Assembly (NCBI RefSeq): GCF_000332275.1
Contig: NZ_CM001776.1
Coordinates: forward strand, 124,001 to 188,000
DNA: 64,000 bases
Reading direction: 5' to 3'
Source of the DNA: Synechococcus sp. PCC 7336
GTDB lineage: Bacteria; Cyanobacteriota; Cyanobacteriia; Thermostichales; PCC-7336
Positions 9,484 to 57,253 of this stretch are shown one piece after another. The position numbers were made by a program, and so were the translations under genes. Each line of letters opens with the position of its first letter. The stretch's first letter is position 1. Below the pieces are notes generated by a model. That model did not search any database, had not been told where the DNA came from, and worked only from the letters and a program-made list of their open reading frames with translations.

Positions 9484-9701
9484 GCTCTAAAGTTGCCCCA
9501 GTATTTGCAAAACCGTGTTGCTTCTATATGTTAGTTGCCTTGTTTGCTGCTAAGTTGCTAGCAAGCTTCTCCGCCCACCCACGTTACTACCATTTCACGG
9601 GCCAATTGCAAGAGGGGTGGATTCATCAAGGCAAACCTGTAGCGATTATAGACAGATGGCTCTCTCAAGCCGTACTGCACCCGAACCTTCGACTGACCAA
9701 T

Positions 9702-9762
9702 CTTAGAGTATGGCGTCTTAGAATTATGGAGTCTTAGAATATGGAGTCTTAGAATATGGAGC
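9702..9762. repeat. 15-bp tandem repeats running into the tRNA remnant
   Basis: Four units of about 15 bp (CTTAGAATATGGAGT and close variants) start at 9702, 9717, 9733 and 9748. The last unit merges with the tRNA-Ala 3' fragment that starts at 9756; ATGGAGCTTAG in the tRNA is nearly the repeat unit. The array therefore looks like a slippage product of the attachment-site end. Confidence 0.7.
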
Positions 9763-9798
9763 TTAGCGGACTCGAACCGCTGACCCCTTCAATGCCAT

Positions 9799-10334
9799 GG
9801 AAAATACCACCCAAGATTGCCCAAGATATAAAATACCTGCAAGCCCATATAGTGCAGTGGTTCAGCCGGGTTTCGTTCCTTTGCCAGCAAGGTGGGATGA
9901 TAGCGTATAACGTACCCCAAGCGTACCAAAATGGCCTGACATCTATGTGGTTGGGTATGAGGTCAGCATAGATCGCAAGTGCAAAAAAGGGACGGTTTCA
10001 GAGGAGTCAATTCATGAATGTTCGAGATGACCAAACCCATCTAAGGGCGATCGAGAACTTCGCATCTGAACTCTCATCAAAATGGTCTGTGAAGTGCTTG
10101 CAACCGTTTATTGGGTAAGGGAGTGCGGAGGTTGGGCCCATGGGACTTTAGTTAGCGTCTCAAAACGGCCAACATGACATTGAAGCAATAAAAGTTTTAT
10201 GGTAGCCTCAACAAGGCTTATACATAGACGTAGCCTGCCTTGGGCCTATTTCACAAAGAAGCCTTTCTGACTGGTAAAAAATAGCACTTTCAATTCTGTT
10301 CGCGTAAAATGATACGCAGGTAGTCCGATCTGAC
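9799..10334. other. island segment without a convincing gene
   Basis: There is no supported coding region in these 536 bases. A 28-codon frame starting at ATG 10014 and a short frame ending near 10030 look like debris. The segment just upstream of 10335 is AT-rich and probably carries the subtilase promoter, but I cannot assign boxes with confidence. Confidence 0.4.
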
Positions 10335-11711
10335 ATGAGCAAGTCTAGCAAAATATCAGAAGCTTTTGATTTGGTATTGGCAAGCGATCCGCCAAACAAA
10401 CGGCGCTCAGCTATTGTCGTCTTTAAGCCCCCTGAGTCCAATCTAATCACAACCGATCGCGCTTTCCGCAAGATAGCCGATCGAGTGAAGCTTTTTGAGC
10501 AGGCAAAACAAGAAAATAGACAAGTTTTCAACAACGTCTTGCAAGGCTATATGAGTGGGAAGCCCACACAGGCCCTAGAGGCCAGGAGAGGGGTACGCCA
10601 TCGTATCGTGGGTAATGGCATATTGCCCCTTGCAACTCTTGATGTCAACAAGGACACCTTGAAGGTACTTGCGGCTCAAGACAGAGTTGTAGCAGTTATG
10701 CCCAATCAGCGTGTTAAGCTGCTGACTCCCGATGAACCTGACAATCTACTAAGTAAGTTTGAAAAAGATAATGAGTCAACTTGGGGAATTCAAGAGTTGG
10801 CTGTTAAAGAACTATGGGAACAAGCTGAAACCAAGGGTCGAGGAGTTAAGGTTGCCGTCCTAGATACAGGAGTTTATGGCGATCATCCTGCATTGCAGGG
10901 CAAAGTTTCAGACTTTACTATCATCGATTCCACAGGGCAGCGGCTAGAGCTACTGAATCAAAAGACCTTTGATTATCATCGTCACGGTACTCATATTTGT
11001 GGGACCATAGCTGGGGGGGAAACTTCTGATGGGGTTGCTATTGGAGTTGCACCAGGGGTCAATTTGGCTGTAGCTCAGATTCATTTCGGCGATCGCTCTT
11101 TCCTCAGTCATATTATTGACGGAATTGACTGGTCTATTGGGGTTGGTGCTGACATTATCAATATGTCAATAGGCATACAGTATTACGATGAAAAAATTGA
11201 CAATCTTTTTCAGCTCTTAGTTGAACGTGGTATAGCTCCTATTGTTGCAATTGGCAACGAATCTCACGGTAGCACTAGTTGCCCTGGAAATGCTGGAAGT
11301 GTTCTAGGGATTGGTGCTTTGGAAAGGAAGAAGACTGGAGGAGTTGATGTTGCGCCCTACAGCGGAGGAAGTAGTATTGATACTCCTGGAGCGCTCTTGG
11401 AGCGGATTGTCAAGCCGGATGTAGTTGCTCCAGGCTCTAACGTCTACTCGTGTGTTCCACCCACCAGTGAGGCCAATGATGAAGAGTATCGATTGATGGA
11501 CGGCACATCAATGGCTGCTCCCCATGTTGCGGGCGTGATGGCTATTCTGATGGCTTCTTGTCCTGAAAAGCCAGTGATAGAAATTTTCAAAGCAATACGT
11601 GAGACTGCAAGGCATCCACGAGGTAAAAAGCGTCGCCCAGATAATCGGTGGGGATATGGGGCAATCGAGCCCTTGGCAGCACTCAATGTGTTACAAGGAA
11701 TGGAGGGGTGA
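10335..11711 (+). CDS. cytosolic subtilisin-like serine protease (S8) with prodomain
   Basis: This is a 458-residue subtilase with an intact catalytic triad: Asp177 in VAVLDTGV, His217 in RHGTHICGT and Ser392 in GTSMAAPHVAG. The oxyanion Asn308 (AIGNES) is also present. Residues about 25-130 form an I9-like prodomain ending in RVVAVMPNQRVKLL, the usual last strand before the catalytic domain. There is no signal peptide or membrane segment, so it should act in the cytoplasm, like intracellular subtilisins. The stop codon lies 6 bp before the next gene, which looks like a free inhibitor. The pair sits alone on a tRNA-bounded island. What triggers the protease and what it cleaves is unknown. Confidence 0.92.
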   Translation: MSKSSKISEAFDLVLASDPPNKRRSAIVVFKPPESNLITTDRAFRKIADRVKLFEQAKQENRQVFNNVLQGYMSGKPTQALEARRGVRHRIVGNGILPLATLDVNKDTLKVLAAQDRVVAVMPNQRVKLLTPDEPDNLLSKFEKDNESTWGIQELAVKELWEQAETKGRGVKVAVLDTGVYGDHPALQGKVSDFTIIDSTGQRLELLNQKTFDYHRHGTHICGTIAGGETSDGVAIGVAPGVNLAVAQIHFGDRSFLSHIIDGIDWSIGVGADIINMSIGIQYYDEKIDNLFQLLVERGIAPIVAIGNESHGSTSCPGNAGSVLGIGALERKKTGGVDVAPYSGGSSIDTPGALLERIVKPDVVAPGSNVYSCVPPTSEANDEEYRLMDGTSMAAPHVAGVMAILMASCPEKPVIEIFKAIRETARHPRGKKRRPDNRWGYGAIEPLAALNVLQGMEG

Positions 11712-11717
11712 ATTAGA

Positions 11718-12122
11718 ATGATTAAGATTAGTAAGGCTTATCTCCAAAAACTTGACGAATTAAAGTCTGGCGAGTTTTCACGAGCAATTGTGGATCTTTC
11801 ACCAAAGTCACAGAATCAGCCTGCTCGTCGAATGGATCGTGAGGAGCGGCTTAGACTGGCAGATGAAACTCGCCAGCTTGCTGAGAGTGCCTTACCGGAA
11901 ATAGATAAACAACTTTCTCGGAACCAAGGAAGGCGGCTTTCAGAAGTTCCTAACAACTTGGGACTCATTGTTGTTGAAGGTCCGGCCTCTGCAATTATTG
12001 CTTTGTCAGAAATTGAGCAAGTTAAAGCAATTCTTGAGGATCAATTAGTAGTATCGAATCAAGGTACTACAATGAAGCAGTTTCGGAAAGCTGTAGGCAC
12101 TCAACTGAAGGTCCTCAAGTAG
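11718..12122 (+). CDS. small protein resembling a free I9 protease inhibitor
   Basis: This is a 134-residue soluble protein without a signal peptide, 6 bp downstream of the subtilase. Its layout mirrors the protease prodomain. A first strand SRAIVDLSP parallels RSAIVVFKP. A charged helix containing RLADETRQLAE parallels KIADRVKLFEQ. A strand LGLIVVEGP parallels ILPLATLDV. A helix with IEQVKAILEDQLVV parallels AQDRVVAVMPNQRV. By eye this is the I9 inhibitor/prodomain fold. The simplest reading is a cognate trans-acting inhibitor or chaperone for the neighbouring protease, giving a protease-antidote module. This is inference from layout; no inhibition data exist here. It could instead be an unrelated alpha/beta protein. 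Confidence 0.65.
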   Translation: MIKISKAYLQKLDELKSGEFSRAIVDLSPKSQNQPARRMDREERLRLADETRQLAESALPEIDKQLSRNQGRRLSEVPNNLGLIVVEGPASAIIALSEIEQVKAILEDQLVVSNQGTTMKQFRKAVGTQLKVLK

Positions 12123-12248
12123 TAACGTTTGGCAGGTAATGCCAACTCAAACAACTTGTAACCGCAAGCGGATCCGCTCGCTGTCAACTTAAGACTGCCG
12201 CATAAATTTGTGTATGCCTTTTAGGGGGTATGGGAAAATCCCAGAAGC

Positions 12249-12277
12249 AAGCGCTCTAGGGGCAACCTAGAGCGCTT
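12249..12277 (-). terminator. 12-bp hairpin downstream of tRNA-Ala
   Basis: The arms AAGCGCTCTAGG (12249-12260) and CCTAGAGCGCTT (12266-12277) pair perfectly around a 5-nt loop. It lies about 33 bp beyond the tRNA 3' end in the tRNA's direction and downstream of the island genes on the other strand, so it could serve both. No long T tract follows on either strand. Confidence 0.55.
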
Positions 12278-12309
12278 GTATCTCTTATCCAATAAGGGTT
12301 TTATGGGGA

Positions 12310-12382
12310 TGGAGCTTAGCGGACTCGAACCGCTGACCCCTTCAATGCCATTGAAGTGCTCTACCAGCTGAGCTAAAGCCCC
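12310..12382 (-). tRNA. tRNA-Ala (anticodon GGC)
   Basis: The reverse complement folds into a standard cloverleaf. The acceptor GGGGCTT pairs with AAGCTCC, including the G3:U70 wobble that identifies alanine tRNAs. The D arm is GCTC/GAGC, the anticodon stem CTTCA/TGAAG encloses ATGGCAT with anticodon GGC, and the T arm is AGCGG/CCGCT with loop TTCGAGT. The discriminator is A and CCA is not encoded. It reads GCC (and GCU) codons. Its 3' half is repeated at 9756-9798, marking it as an integration site. Confidence 0.96.
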
Positions 12383-12483
12383 ATGTATCTCACGGATATC
12401 TAGGATGCAGGATGGACGAGCGGATGTCAACCAGCCAAACCTGAGAACTGCCTCATTCCCCAAGAGAGCGCGGCGATCGCCTT

Positions 12484-13946: not shown

Positions 13947-13961
13947 TTGTGGGTCAGGATT

Positions 13962-15320
13962 GTGAAGACATCAGTGCAGGAGCGCAGATCGAGTCAAGGC
14001 TATATCTTGCCACTGTCGCTCGCGGTGGGGTTGACGGTGACGTTGGTTGCCTTGACCATGATCGCCAGAGTCAGGACCAATAAGGTCGCCGCCAGGAGCC
14101 AGGTTTCTTCAGCAGGAAGTCTAGCGGCAGCCGAAGCGGGTATGGATCGCACCATAGCGCGGCTGAATCAGACTCAATTCAGTCACTTACTTGCATTAGA
14201 TTATGACTCGCTCGACCCGAATACTCCTTGGCTAAATCCTGATAACTTTCCGGCTTGTTTTGCAAATCAAGCCGCATTTGAAGCCGAGTTTTTATCTGGT
14301 GATGTCGGGGGTTCCAGTCAAACCTTCAATGTCATCAGTTATGACTACGACCCTACTGTAGGAGCACAATCTGGCCTACTCACTGTTGAAGGCCAGTCGG
14401 GCTTATCGAGAACGAGGGTTCAGCAAAGAGTGCCTATCGCTTTCCGACCGGGAACCTTTCCAGGATTGTTGGGTACATATGATGTCAGCATCGGAGGTAA
14501 CGATGTTGAAGGTGTCGAAGGCAACGTGGTCTGTACAAATTTGGAACAGTGTCCAGTTAGCTGCACGGGAGATAATAATACAGCAACTGAACTCAACTTG
14601 TTGGCTGCAATTAATGGCAATGAGAATACTACCATGATAGGAGGAAGTATCTTTCTTGGTAACGTCAATCTTCCTCCAGTGTTGACATTCCCAGGTGTCA
14701 TTACTGGTAATGGTAATGGAGCATACACCATTCCTGCTATCACCACTGGCCCTACCACATTACCTCGATCTACAGACAATCCCAATCCGGTAGATAATGT
14801 TTATCACTATCAAGTACCCAGCATCGATCTTGGTGGAAATTCGAGCCAGCAACTTATTATCGATATTAAGGCTGGGGAATCTGTCTATTTGTACTTGCAA
14901 GGGGATTTGACATTAAGTGGGAACGCTACTATTGTCACCCGAGTAGTCGATGCTCTCGACATGCCTATCCTCGATGCATCTGGTCAGCCTATAGATGTCC
15001 CTCCTGCTGCAGTACGCATTTATGGTAATGATGACGCCCTACCTGATAACATGACCAATCAGACCATTATGTTAAATGGCAATACCTGTCTGTCTGCTTT
15101 TGTTTATGCCCCTAATGCTTTAATGGGAGTTAATGGTGGTGGCAGTTGTTCTCCAAATATTGATGGTGCTGTATGGGTTAAAAGATGGGATGGTTCAAAT
15201 GGAAATGGCGTTGAAATTTCTGTCCCTGACGGTATAGCAGCGGCTTTAGGCAACTCAACTGCGAATTTTGCAAACAACACACAAGCCCCTGAAGATTGGA
15301 GTCGCCAAGGAGTTAACTGA
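13962..15320 (+). CDS. PilX-like minor pilin-associated protein
   Basis: This is a 452-residue protein with one N-terminal hydrophobic helix introduced by SSQGYILPLSLAVGLTVTLV, then a long extracytoplasmic part rich in Asn, Thr and Gly with several Cys (CTNLEQCPVSC). The N-terminus matches the PilX/type IV pilus assembly class found first in minor-pilin operons. Such proteins prime pilus assembly and affect adhesion or DNA uptake. The GTG at 13962 follows an AGG at good distance; a TTG at 13947 is the alternative. Its TGA overlaps the ATG of the next gene (TGATG at 15318-15322), so translation is coupled. The large variable C-terminal region may be the adhesive part; that is inference. Confidence 0.78.
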   Translation: MKTSVQERRSSQGYILPLSLAVGLTVTLVALTMIARVRTNKVAARSQVSSAGSLAAAEAGMDRTIARLNQTQFSHLLALDYDSLDPNTPWLNPDNFPACFANQAAFEAEFLSGDVGGSSQTFNVISYDYDPTVGAQSGLLTVEGQSGLSRTRVQQRVPIAFRPGTFPGLLGTYDVSIGGNDVEGVEGNVVCTNLEQCPVSCTGDNNTATELNLLAAINGNENTTMIGGSIFLGNVNLPPVLTFPGVITGNGNGAYTIPAITTGPTTLPRSTDNPNPVDNVYHYQVPSIDLGGNSSQQLIIDIKAGESVYLYLQGDLTLSGNATIVTRVVDALDMPILDASGQPIDVPPAAVRIYGNDDALPDNMTNQTIMLNGNTCLSAFVYAPNALMGVNGGGSCSPNIDGAVWVKRWDGSNGNGVEISVPDGIAAALGNSTANFANNTQAPEDWSRQGVN

Positions 15321-15793
15321 TGAAATCTATTAACTTTAAAAAAGTCACTCCTAATGGGTTCACCTTGGCTGAGGTTTTGGCGGCCACAATTGTAGTCCTT
15401 GCTTTTGCAGGGGGAAGCTTTCCCCTGCTGGCCCTATCGTCAATTGGATTGTCCGGCAGCGAGCGATTCAGTACAGCCACAACTCTAGTTCAGCAGGATC
15501 TAGATTTGATTCGCGATCGCGCATCTAGATTTAATGGCGGTGCTATGTGTACAACGACGACAATTGCTGCATTCGACGCTTTTCTATCTTTGCCCACCAG
15601 CTTGCCCGATCCTATCAATACAGGAAATTATTCAGTGGGTGACTATTCTGTCGTGCGAACAACTGCTATAAGTGCGGGTGTGGAAACGCTTCAGGTTACT
15701 TATCAGGTTCAGCACGATCCCAGTGGAGAAGTGATTATTGATGGTTTGGCATCCGAGGTTATGCCTAGCTATGTTTACCTTTGTCCGACGTAA
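15320..15793 (+). CDS. type IV minor prepilin (PilV-like)
   Basis: This is a 157-residue prepilin. The class III signal NGFTLAEVLAATIVVLAFAG gives cleavage after Gly, a mature Phe1, Glu5 and the hydrophobic assembly helix. The C-terminal part has two Cys (CTTTT and YLCPT) that could form the D-region disulfide. It is second in a four-gene operon and overlaps the stop of the first gene by one base. The role is minor pilin in pilus initiation. Confidence 0.85.
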   Translation: MKSINFKKVTPNGFTLAEVLAATIVVLAFAGGSFPLLALSSIGLSGSERFSTATTLVQQDLDLIRDRASRFNGGAMCTTTTIAAFDAFLSLPTSLPDPINTGNYSVGDYSVVRTTAISAGVETLQVTYQVQHDPSGEVIIDGLASEVMPSYVYLCPT

Positions 15794-15820
15794 TTAAGAG
15801 TGAGGCTGGAGGAAATGAAT

Positions 15821-16297
15821 ATGCTGTGTCGAAGGACAATTAACCGCCCAAATATTAGGGGATTTTCCCTAGTAGAATCATTGGCAGTTCTCGGGATGGT
15901 AAGCATCCTTGCTGTAGTCGCTGCACCTAGCTTGCGCCCAATCTTCGATCGGCAAACCCTACTGCGATCGACCACTTTAGTTAGAAGGGCGCTCAAAGAG
16001 GCACAGCGGCAAGCCATGCGAGATGGCTCCTCTTGCTCAGTAATGTTTTCTGCCACCGATATTGAAACCCGGTGCCCACCTACTAGTCCTACCGCCACTC
16101 GAATAGAGCAGCTTCCCGATGAAGTATCTATCCCTTTAAACAGTACCGTTACATATACGTTTCGAGGCACTGCAACGGGCGCAGGAAGCATTATTCAACT
16201 GGATATGGATGGGTTAACGAGTCGATGTGTAGAAGTTGTGTCAATTGTGGGTAAACTTCGCACTGGCGTTATCAATAGTGGTAATTGCGTGCTGTAA
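15821..16297 (+). CDS. type IV minor prepilin (FimT/GspH-like)
   Basis: A prepilin signal RGFSLVESLAVLGMVSILAV is followed by a FimT/GspH-type body with RALKEAQRQAMRDGSSC. GspH-class proteins are minor pseudopilins that cap or initiate the fibre, and FimT homologues can bind DNA during uptake. I chose ATG 15821 because GGAGG at 15808-15812 is then 8 nt away; ATG 15815 and GTG 15800 are in frame but poorly spaced. The stop codon overlaps the next ATG (TAATG at 16295-16299). Confidence 0.83.
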   Translation: MLCRRTINRPNIRGFSLVESLAVLGMVSILAVVAAPSLRPIFDRQTLLRSTTLVRRALKEAQRQAMRDGSSCSVMFSATDIETRCPPTSPTATRIEQLPDEVSIPLNSTVTYTFRGTATGAGSIIQLDMDGLTSRCVEVVSIVGKLRTGVINSGNCVL

Positions 16298-54481: not shown

Positions 54482-56611
54482 TCAATTCGTTTGCCGAACT
54501 TCGCCAGTCTTTGGATCGATGGAATAGATGGTCTGTGAATCGTATCCAACGACCACAGCTAAATAATCGCCATTGCTGGCTAGTTGGATGAGTGGCAGCG
54601 CCTCAGACGCCGCCGCAAGATAGTGAGACAATTCAATCCGTCTGACTAGACTTCCGTCAGTGCGCAATTCCACCAGTCGGTGAGGACCCTTGCGGTCACC
54701 CCAATTGGTTTCAATGCCGAACAGGCGATCGTGTTGGGGCGAGTAGGCGATCGCTTCGAGATCGATATTGTTCAAGCTATGTGCCGCCACCCACTCGTTT
54801 GTGTCAACTCGATACTCGTACAGGTATCCTTCACCTCCCAAAGTAGCGACAAACATTCGGCGACGCTCGGGATCGTAGGTAATCCCCTGAGTCCAACTGA
54901 GTTCGGGGAAAGTAGGCGGAATCGTCATTTCTGTAACGGTCCCAGTCTCTAAATCGATTTCGTACAGACTGTGATTGCTGATGGCATAGGCTGCAGAGGA
55001 GTCGGGAATGGTAGCAACATCGGTCAATCTTACGGACAGCGATCGCCTGACTTCGGGCGAGGAGCCAGACCAAGAAAATTCTGTTAGGGCACTGTTGACT
55101 GAGTTACGGCTAATTATGACATCTGGTCTAGTGCTGACCAGATCGAGGGCATAAAATCTGCGCGCATTTGGAGGGGGACCGACAGGGGGTGGATCGTCCG
55201 ATGCAAAGCGCACGACATCAACGCGTTCAAACGGTTCTGGTTCGAGGCCCACATTCTCGAGAACTACACCTAAGTCCGCAGTTGGAGAGGGCGATCGCAC
55301 AAATAATCTAGCTACAAGAAAAATACTATATAGAGTCAGTAGAGAGCCAAAAACGCCCCGCAGAATTATCAATTTGGTATTTTTTTCTCCAGAAACTTCA
55401 GGCAGATTGGGTTGGGATAAACGGTCTTCCCGATATCGATGTAGTAGCGGGAAATGGCGGCTTAACCACGGGGTAATTTGAAATAAAACACGATTGAGGA
55501 CCCGAGTTGGGCTATTTGAGATCTCTAGCGGACGAGCGCTAGCCTGTGGCTCGATCCACGGATTGGAGACTACTTCTGGTTGGGAAAAGTTCCGAGGGAT
55601 GGATGCAGGCTCGGGTCGAGACTGCTGAGTTGTAGCTGTAGGCTCATCTTCTGGAAGTCGGCGATCGCCAAATGCTTTTGGCGTCAATGAGTTGGGCTTG
55701 ACATCAGCTTCTACAAAGGGGCCGACTGCTGGTTTGAGGATCTCGTTAGTCCCGTTTGACTTGGGTTCAGGTAGAAACGGAGCAAAATCTGCAAGCACTT
55801 CTTCAACTGATTGATAGCGATGACTCACCGCCTGCTCCAACAGACCGTCTAAAATCCACCCGAGGTCTTCGCTAATCGACTGCAGGAGAAAGTCATCCCA
55901 AACCCAACGATCGGTATGAATGTCGAACAGTGTAAACGGCGAAATTTGGGTGAGTAGATAAATACAGGTCACCCCGAGACTGTACAAATCGCTGGCAAAA
56001 AATGCTTGACCGCGCAATTGCTCGGGAGCCGCATATTCAGCACTGCCAATGGTGGTGCCGTAGCCAGCTATTAGAGTTCCCGTCGCAAACCTCGCTGCCC
56101 CATAATCCACCAAAACAAATTGACCGTCCTGCTTGCGGCGAATAATGTTGGCCGGTTTGACATCGCGATGAATAATATTCTGGCTGTGGATAAATTGCAG
56201 CGTGGGCAACAAATTGGTCAGCAATCGCCAAATTTGCGCTTCGCTAAAGGGGCCGAGCTTCTCCAGCTCCTCTTCGAGATTCGGGCCTTCGATAAATTCT
56301 TGAATCAGATAGCGATGCTGCCCCGCTTCGAGATAGTCGAGACAAGTGGGAATGCAATCGTGATTGCCCAGCTCCTTGAGTCGAGCAGCTTCCTGCTCGA
56401 ATAGCAGTGACGCCTTATCTGCGTGCAGTTGATTTTGGGGTTGGAGAAAAAATTGCTTGACCGCACAACGGGGCTTGCTGGGCTGGCTCTCGTCAACCGC
56501 CAGAAACGTCCGGCTAAAGCCCCCTTGGCCAATCTGATGGAGGATGCGGTAGCGATCGCCGATAAGACCTTCTACCGGATTGGATGAGTTGGAGGTGGCA
56601 TCTGGAATCAT
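54482..56611 (-). CDS. Hanks-type Ser/Thr protein kinase with C-terminal sensor-like domain
   Basis: Residues about 15-280 are a kinase domain: glycine loop IGQGGFSRTF, Lys in CAVKQF, catalytic HRDVKPANI, DFG replaced by DYG (LVDYGAARF) and APE in SAEYAAPEQL. A Pro/Ser-rich linker follows, then one membrane helix (around 425-445). The extracytoplasmic C-terminal part has repeated strands such as YDPERRRMFVATLGGEGYLY and YSPQHDRLFGIETN, like a beta-propeller. The kinase is therefore cytosolic and may sense an outside ligand. I chose ATG 56611; TTG 56662 is open upstream. Confidence 0.9.
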   Translation of the reverse strand: MIPDATSNSSNPVEGLIGDRYRILHQIGQGGFSRTFLAVDESQPSKPRCAVKQFFLQPQNQLHADKASLLFEQEAARLKELGNHDCIPTCLDYLEAGQHRYLIQEFIEGPNLEEELEKLGPFSEAQIWRLLTNLLPTLQFIHSQNIIHRDVKPANIIRRKQDGQFVLVDYGAARFATGTLIAGYGTTIGSAEYAAPEQLRGQAFFASDLYSLGVTCIYLLTQISPFTLFDIHTDRWVWDDFLLQSISEDLGWILDGLLEQAVSHRYQSVEEVLADFAPFLPEPKSNGTNEILKPAVGPFVEADVKPNSLTPKAFGDRRLPEDEPTATTQQSRPEPASIPRNFSQPEVVSNPWIEPQASARPLEISNSPTRVLNRVLFQITPWLSRHFPLLHRYREDRLSQPNLPEVSGEKNTKLIILRGVFGSLLTLYSIFLVARLFVRSPSPTADLGVVLENVGLEPEPFERVDVVRFASDDPPPVGPPPNARRFYALDLVSTRPDVIISRNSVNSALTEFSWSGSSPEVRRSLSVRLTDVATIPDSSAAYAISNHSLYEIDLETGTVTEMTIPPTFPELSWTQGITYDPERRRMFVATLGGEGYLYEYRVDTNEWVAAHSLNNIDLEAIAYSPQHDRLFGIETNWGDRKGPHRLVELRTDGSLVRRIELSHYLAAASEALPLIQLASNGDYLAVVVGYDSQTIYSIDPKTGEVRQTN

Positions 56612-56806
56612 GGTGGCAGCGTTACAGAAGTGTCGCGAACTCCAGTATAATTTGATTTTCAAGGCTGTCCCGCAAATCCTCTATGCCTGGGACTTCCACG
56701 AGAAGGACTTTTATCGCCATTGACATCGCGGCCACTGTCAGAACTAGCAGCAAAATCGATTCCGATCGGATGGCAGCATTGCTCGGAGAAAGTTCTGGGT
56801 TAAGAC

Positions 56807-57253
56807 TTAAGACGGTTGAATGGGATCGCCTTCGGGAGGATGCCGATCGAGCTGACGATCGGCTGCGCGAATTGCGATCGTCCTTTGCCGATTTAAGACC
56901 AAGACTGCCACAGTTGCCCGCCCAGTTGGGGTGAGACCCACAATCGACAGACCGTCTGCCGACCAAATGAAGTGGTCGCTCCATTGCATTTGTCTCGGAT
57001 GGAAGAGAGAGGTGCTTTTCCCTGTCAGCAGATCGATCCCCGTCAATTGGTTTGACTTTCTGCGATTGCAGTGAAAACAAGCTAGAGCCAAGTTGTCGAG
57101 AGTATCGTCGCCTCCAGCAGATAGAGGTAGGACATGGTCTATCGTAAAACGGATGTACTGCCATTGCTCGCTAGCATGACAGTATTCACACAAGTAATGG
57201 GCTCGCTGTCGGACTCTCTGCCGGACGGATGCGGAAAGCTTGGTGCGAGCCAC
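56807..57253 (-). CDS. HNH endonuclease family protein
   Basis: This is 148 residues with an HNH core of about 75: CEYCHASEQWQYIRFTIDHV, then LALACFHCNRRKSN. Two CxxC pairs bind zinc, and the His-Asn-His set is in place. In cyanobacteria such proteins are common and mostly uncharacterised. It lies 11 bp after a small acidic protein gene on the same strand; the pair recurs as a unit in cyanobacteria, from memory. Confidence 0.85.
   Translation of the reverse strand: MARTKLSASVRQRVRQRAHYLCEYCHASEQWQYIRFTIDHVLPLSAGGDDTLDNLALACFHCNRRKSNQLTGIDLLTGKSTSLFHPRQMQWSDHFIWSADGLSIVGLTPTGRATVAVLVLNRQRTIAIRAADRQLDRHPPEGDPIQPS

What the first reader, a model, noticed from the sequence alone, without database searches (positions are those of the whole stretch)
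9756..12382. A two-gene protease island built into tRNA-Ala
The 43-bp repeat covers exactly the anticodon loop to the 3' end of tRNA-Ala, and the displaced copy lies at the far end of the segment. This is a classical integration footprint. The cargo is only a subtilase and a small partner, with no integrase. Minimal two-gene cargo at a tRNA hotspot is typical of defence or conflict modules carried by satellites.
Basis: partly seen in the sequence, partly recalled or inferred. Interest (0 to 1): 0.75.

Follow-up and report, generated by a model that had tools for sequence, protein, structure and literature searches.

The report
Protease and inhibitor cassette in tRNA-Ala
A small piece of foreign DNA has inserted into a tRNA gene of this cyanobacterium; it carries a cell-internal protease together with a stand-alone copy of that protease's own "safety catch" domain, a gene pair found in at least six bacterial phyla and often placed right behind an immune-receptor-like NACHT gene, so it looks like part of a bacterial defence or self-destruct switch.

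Summary
A 43-nt perfect repeat (9756-9798 / 12309-12351) runs from the first anticodon-loop base of tRNA-Ala(GGC) to its 3' end. It brackets 2,510 bp of lower G+C DNA holding two genes and no integrase. Other cargo at the same tRNA with a matching 3'-half repeat (44.7 kb, prophage-like, with adjacent integrase, in G040; 1.1 kb in G009) supports an integration site. The element now looks non-autonomous (CIME-like). Nothing shows a satellite.

The cargo matters more than the footprint. The 134-aa partner is a stand-alone homologue of the subtilase's own prodomain (hhalign 97.9%, E 3.7e-13; best structural matches are subtilase propeptides). A homologue lies directly downstream of 46 of 54 related subtilases in six phyla. 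In 13-14 loci a NACHT STAND NTPase (~950 aa) directly precedes the pair.

Best reading: a cytoplasmic zymogen protease plus trans-acting propeptide inhibitor, elsewhere the effector arm of a NACHT conflict operon. The window copy lacks the NTPase, so its own defence role is inferred. Inhibition and defence are untested; a fused docking model failed. New variant of known kinds (trans propeptide inhibitors; peptidase-armed STAND systems).

The parts
9756..9798 (-). displaced att-like copy of the 3' part of tRNA-Ala(GGC), nt 32 to 3' end
   Evidence: 43-nt identity
12309..12351 (-). matching block inside the intact tRNA gene (first anticodon-loop base to 3' end, plus 1 nt)
   Evidence: position by hand
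12310..12382 (-). tRNA-Ala(GGC), intact, no encoded CCA (ARAGORN span 12307-12383)
   Evidence: and sequence
9799..12308 (.). inserted element, 2,510 bp, 46.2% G+C
   Evidence: bounded by the repeats; composition
10335..11711 (+). S8 subtilase, 458 aa, triad D177/H217/S392 with oxyanion N308, no apparent signal peptide (no hydrophobic N-terminus)
   Evidence: Pfam PF00082 E 1.1e-47; invariant catalytic columns
10335..10730 (+). N-terminal prodomain of the subtilase (about residues 1-132), weak Inhibitor_I9 match
11718..12122 (+). 134-aa stand-alone propeptide-type partner (proposed trans inhibitor) with the invariant E107-x-Q109 motif
11702..11708 (+). GGAGGGG, Shine-Dalgarno-like, inside the end of the subtilase gene, 9 nt before the partner ATG
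   Evidence: sequence
12247..12279 (+). terminator-like hairpin (14 pairs) after the partner; number of such sites in the region is not above chance

Best explanation
A small element inserted by site-specific recombination into the 3' end of tRNA-Ala(GGC) and is now stranded without its own integrase. It carries a two-gene operon: a cytoplasmic zymogen subtilase, and a stand-alone protein that shares its origin with the protease's own propeptide. The partner most likely binds the mature protease like a cleaved propeptide, its beta-sheet against the two surface helices (invariant Glu of the E-x-Q motif) and its C-terminal tail in the substrate cleft, keeping the protease off until it is removed or degraded. 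In many other genomes the pair sits directly behind a NACHT STAND NTPase, so a common role is probably as the protease effector of a STAND-type conflict (defence or cell-death) system; in this genome the pair stands alone. Shown here: repeat, gene pair, conservation of the pair, propeptide homology and fold, NACHT linkage elsewhere. Inferred: inhibition, defence role, mode of release.
For: Repeat and composition; other cargo at the same tRNA, with integrase. Partner homologue directly downstream of 46 of 54 clade subtilases in six phyla. Profile-profile match of partner with the subtilases' own prodomain, 97.9%, E 3.7e-13, 114 columns end to end; the partner profile also finds the subtilase prodomains of G031 and G298 in a genome scan, E 1.8e-7 and 2.7e-6. 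AF2 model pLDDT 88; Foldseek's best high-probability matches are ProN-Tk-SP, Tk-subtilisin propeptide, pro-subtilisin E, CspB, BPN' prosegment and PCSK9 prodomain; VIA-align Z 8.6 to ProN-Tk-SP. Invariant E107 and Q109 fall where subtilisin propeptides carry the helix-capping E-x-D or E-x-N (PMC6993865). In 14 of 48 partners the chain ends 3-8 residues after the EDQ motif, 4 of them exactly 6, about where P1 lies in the BPN' propeptide (D71 to Y77). NACHT NTPase upstream in relatives.
Against: No inhibition data. The fused catalytic-domain-plus-partner model was poor (pLDDT 65, pTM 0.57), so binding is not supported by prediction. The window partner has a 25-residue tail after EDQ. No Pfam match for the partner. 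Foldseek E-values are above 0.001. 35 of 48 scored subtilases have no NTPase within the fetched upstream DNA, the window's included. Eight subtilases lack the partner, so it is dispensable in some lineages.
Confidence: 0.62

Rival explanations
1. The partner is a folding helper acting in trans (intermolecular chaperone), not a regulator: it helps the subtilase fold as propeptides do.
For: Maturation of most subtilases needs the propeptide, which aids folding as well as inhibiting (PMC6993865); the partner has a propeptide fold.
Against: The subtilases keep a full prodomain in cis, so a second chaperone seems unneeded; some members lack the partner.
Confidence: 0.15
2. An ordinary intracellular protease with its housekeeping inhibitor (like Bacillus Isp1 with IPI), used for protein turnover and unrelated to defence; NACHT linkage is a side recruitment.
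For: Most copies lack the NTPase; Isp1/IPI shows that such pairs exist (PMC3901451).
Against: Very patchy: intact partner in 2 of 292 cyanobacterial genomes sampled; here it lies on an inserted element; NACHT linkage spans five phyla and needs at least 6 changes on the tree.
Confidence: 0.3
3. An addiction (toxin-antitoxin-like) pair that keeps the stranded element in the chromosome: stable protease, labile inhibitor.
For: Two-gene operon on a small element without other functions.
Against: No plasmid in the collection carries the partner; other pairs are not on obvious tRNA-borne elements; the subtilase has its own prodomain.
Confidence: 0.1
4. The repeat is an old tandem tRNA duplication that decayed, not an integration scar.
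For: Short 15-16-bp tandem units resembling the tRNA 3' end abut the displaced copy (9701-9761).
Against: 43 nt of perfect identity ending abruptly at the anticodon loop; the same kind of repeat bounds other cargo in G009 and, with an integrase beside it, in G040; foreign composition.
Confidence: 0.05

Closest known systems
Stand-alone subtilisin propeptide-like inhibitors (Plasmodium SUB1-ProM, Toxoplasma MIC5, yeast proteinase B inhibitor, Arabidopsis SPI-1; family I9)
   Same: Propeptide fold as a free protein; SUB1-ProM is encoded next to subtilase genes and is a potent SUB1 inhibitor (PMC6993865).
   Different: Here bacterial, in a two-gene operon with a leaderless subtilase, not matched by the Pfam I9 model; inhibition untested.
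Bacillus subtilis intracellular protease Isp1 and its inhibitor IPI
   Same: Cytoplasmic subtilisin with a dedicated small inhibitor (PMC3901451).
   Different: IPI has an Ig-like fold; this partner has a propeptide fold.
Streptococcal SpeB and Spi (from memory, not tested)
   Same: Propeptide-like inhibitor gene directly behind the protease gene.
   Different: Secreted cysteine protease; unrelated folds.
NACHT/STAND conflict systems with peptidase partners (for example a NACHT protein beside a WD40-S8 peptidase in Thiohalocapsa PB-PSB1, PMC10907252)
   Same: In 13-14 relatives a NACHT NTPase, several with an NNH1 N-terminus, directly precedes the S8 gene.
   Different: Separate leaderless zymogen subtilase plus a trans propeptide as third gene; the window copy has no linked NTPase.
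CIMEs (cis-mobilizable elements; from memory)
   Same: Flanked by att-like repeats, no recombinase or transfer genes.
   Different: Only 2.5 kb; mobilisation in trans not shown.

Membership tests
CIME / decayed integrative element | flanked by att-like repeats at an integration site | tested here: met
   matching occupied sites
CIME / decayed integrative element | no integrase or transfer genes of its own | tested here: met
CIME / decayed integrative element | can be mobilised in trans | not testable with these tools
   14 tyrosine-recombinase matches in the genome, none tied to this site
Satellite / phage-inducible island | integrase, replication or packaging genes | tested here: not met
Propeptide-like (I9-type) inhibitor | subtilase propeptide fold as a free protein | tested here: met
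Propeptide-like (I9-type) inhibitor | sequence match to Pfam PF05922 | tested here: not met
   no I9 match in 31 members; the cis prodomains match weakly
Propeptide-like (I9-type) inhibitor | inhibits a subtilase | not testable with these tools
   fused model inconclusive
NACHT STAND conflict system (relatives) | NACHT NTPase in the same operon | tested here: met
   PF05729 E 7e-14 to 3e-18 in 8 proteins directly upstream of the pair
NACHT STAND conflict system (window copy) | NACHT NTPase linked to the pair | tested here: not met
   none in the window; one NACHT relative 1.7 Mb away
IetAS | IetS-type S8 protease next to an AAA+ ATPase (IetA) | tested here: not met
   IetS match only E 7e-5; no ATPase neighbour in the element
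Anti-phage defence system | protects against phage | not testable with these tools
   needs an experiment

The most novel reading that the evidence does not exclude
An undescribed three-part bacterial immune or cell-death system: a NACHT STAND receptor, a cytoplasmic zymogen subtilase, and a detached propeptide that holds the protease off in trans until the receptor fires, with two-gene derivatives (as in the window) that travel without the receptor, here into a tRNA integration site.
Probability: 0.38. Interest if true: 0.85.

Novelty: new variant of a known kind. Interest (0 to 1): 0.62.

Why it matters
Bacterial NLR-like proteins usually carry fused or adaptor-linked effectors. A conserved operon in which a NACHT protein is paired with a protease and with a detached copy of that protease's propeptide suggests a simple, testable activation logic: removing an inhibitor. 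It also gives a bacterial counterpart to the eukaryotic stand-alone propeptide inhibitors, and defines a protein family without a Pfam entry that can be annotated at once.

Tried and rejected
Phage or satellite origin: no relatives in IMG/VR, none of the partner in plasmids, only generic subtilases in phages. Orthologous empty site: relatives of the order have tRNA-Ala(GGC) in other gene contexts, and plsY and the MFS gene are not near it. Integrase or NTPase remnant in 9799-10334: none above noise. An integrase in the genome resembling that of G040: only about 25% identity. Docking by reading through the stop (TGA read as W; the partner is in frame) gave a low-confidence model. A first joint alignment misplaced partners onto the catalytic domain and was discarded. 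The partner profile against PDB sequences found no relative, so only profile-profile, genome-scan and fold comparison show the kinship. att-like repeats next to tRNAs near other pairs (L101, L107, L140): none found in the DNA held. The place of the window subtilase in the tree is unresolved (very long branch). Papers: nothing found on a NACHT plus subtilase plus propeptide operon, in open-licence papers only.

Full report
OBSERVATION. The repeat is real. 9756-9798 and 12309-12351 are identical over 43 nt, and the only tRNA ARAGORN finds in the window is Ala(GGC) at 12307-12383 minus. Numbered by hand, the block begins at tRNA nt 32, the first base of the anticodon loop, and ends just past the 3' end. 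The intact gene is at the right; the displaced half is 2.5 kb downstream of it. The segment between has 46.2% G+C (flanks 54-59%) and clearly lower third-position G+C. It holds a subtilase (10335-11711) and a 134-aa ORF (11718-12122), followed by a 14-pair hairpin. A GGAGGGG lies 9 nt before the partner's ATG inside the end of the subtilase gene, so the genes are probably translated together.

INTEGRATION SITE. The whole genome has one intact tRNA-Ala(GGC) and this one half copy; its other matches are other tRNA genes at about 80% identity. Among 59 relatives searched with the tRNA, the genomes of the same order show no half copy. Two others do. In G009 a 1.1-kb segment lies between the intact tRNA and a half copy of about 50 nt. 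In G040 a half copy (91% over 46 nt) lies 44.7 kb downstream of the tRNA, with an integrase at L092:1308-2390 beside it and tail, baseplate and endolysin genes inside, that is, a prophage. So this tRNA end is used by integrases, and the window element is best read as an insertion that now lacks its recombinase. Its flanking genes are not found around the tRNA in the same-order relatives examined, so an orthologous empty site is still missing.

THE PROTEASE. It is an S8 subtilase with all catalytic residues (D177, H217, N308, S392), no apparent signal peptide, and an N-terminal prodomain of about 130 residues that matches Inhibitor_I9 weakly. Only 3 other genomes of 292 cyanobacteria sampled hold a close relative. 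A scan of the species-representative genome collection gave 54 members, mostly cyanobacteria, but also Chloroflexota, Planctomycetota, Pseudomonadota, Methylomirabilota, Acidobacteriota and one distant Bacteroidota.

THE PARTNER. In 46 of these 54 a homologue of the 134-aa ORF lies directly downstream, also in G031. The alignment has invariant K3, S5, G82, V102, E107, Q109. No Pfam family matches. Three lines show that it is a detached subtilase propeptide: profile-profile comparison with the subtilases' own prodomains (97.9%, E 3.7e-13); a genome search with the partner profile, which picks up the subtilase prodomains in G031 and G298; and structure (pLDDT 88), where Foldseek's best high-probability matches are propeptides of Tk-SP, Tk-subtilisin, subtilisin E, CspB, BPN' and PCSK9, with Z 8.6 for ProN-Tk-SP. 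Foldseek E-values are modest and Z values of 5-7 are common for this small alpha-beta fold, so the fold result counts mainly together with the sequence result. In known propeptides a Glu, and an Asp or Asn two residues on, cap two catalytic-domain helices (PMC6993865); here E107-x-Q109 is invariant, whereas the cis prodomain of the same protease has P-N-Q at that place. In 14 of 48 partners the protein ends 3-8 residues after this motif, about where the P1 residue of a cleaved propeptide would lie. That is the anatomy of a product-like inhibitor. The window member has a longer tail.

A THIRD GENE ELSEWHERE. Comparing the flanks of all loci showed one more shared gene: a protein of about 950 aa directly upstream of the subtilase, often overlapping its start, in 13 complete or partial cases plus a frameshifted locus L142. 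It has a P-loop and a NACHT domain above the curated cut-off (PF05729), with an NNH1 N-terminal helical domain in several, and weak similarity to the antiphage NACHT protein EruA. The lineages include Acidobacteriota, Planctomycetota, Pseudomonadota, Chloroflexota and cyanobacteria. On the subtilase tree its presence needs at least 6 changes, so it has been gained or lost repeatedly. A fragment of partner near such a NACHT gene also occurs in G178. The window has no NTPase; the genome's one distant NACHT relative lies 1.7 Mb away.

MECHANISM. The best-supported reading is a cytoplasmic protease held by a trans-acting propeptide. In the three-gene form the NACHT protein would sense an infection or damage signal and free the protease. 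In the two-gene form release must come from another cue, such as loss or degradation of the inhibitor. The inhibition step rests on homology, fold and motif; no binding prediction supports it. The defence role rests on gene linkage only.

KNOWN OR NEW. Free propeptide-like inhibitors are known in eukaryotes, also beside their subtilase genes (SUB1-ProM, PMC6993865). A cytoplasmic subtilisin with an inhibitor is known in Bacillus, but with an Ig fold (PMC3901451). NACHT or other STAND proteins beside peptidases are known, including a WD40-S8 peptidase next to a NACHT protein (PMC10907252). I found no description of the combination in open-licence papers, which is not proof of absence. PADLOC and NCBIfam gave no specific model for the partner or the operon. 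I therefore call it a new variant of known kinds.

Noticed in passing
window 9701-9761: Just outside the displaced tRNA half lie three to four 15-16-bp tandem units (..TCTTAGAATATGGAG..) whose ATGGAG(T)CTTAG core resembles the tRNA 3' end itself; perhaps slippage copies or scars of repeated integration and excision.
   Followed up: no
L092-L094 (G040:C23:1181-45973): A 44.7-kb prophage-like element in tRNA-Ala(GGC), with integrase next to the displaced half copy and tail, baseplate and endolysin genes.
   Followed up: partly
L095:1958-3150 (G009): A 1.1-kb element at tRNA-Ala(GGC) in a small (1.7 Mb) cyanobacterial genome, holding one 213-aa ORF without PHROGs match.
   Followed up: partly
L142: The subtilase is split by a frameshift in this locus while part of the NTPase and the partner remain.
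   Followed up: no
L181 (G178): A partner fragment lies near a NACHT gene of the same family; no full-length partner is seen there and the subtilase was not looked for.
   Followed up: partly
G000:C1:1153173-1164191: Three tyrosine-recombinase genes lie within 11 kb in the window's genome, 14 recombinase matches in all.
   Followed up: no
window 13947-16297: Low-G+C cluster with prepilin-like N-termini (GFTLAEVLA, GFSLVESLA), probably minor pilin genes.
   Followed up: no
window 56807-57253: ORF resembling an HNH endonuclease next to a serine/threonine-kinase-like ORF (54482-56662).
   Followed up: no
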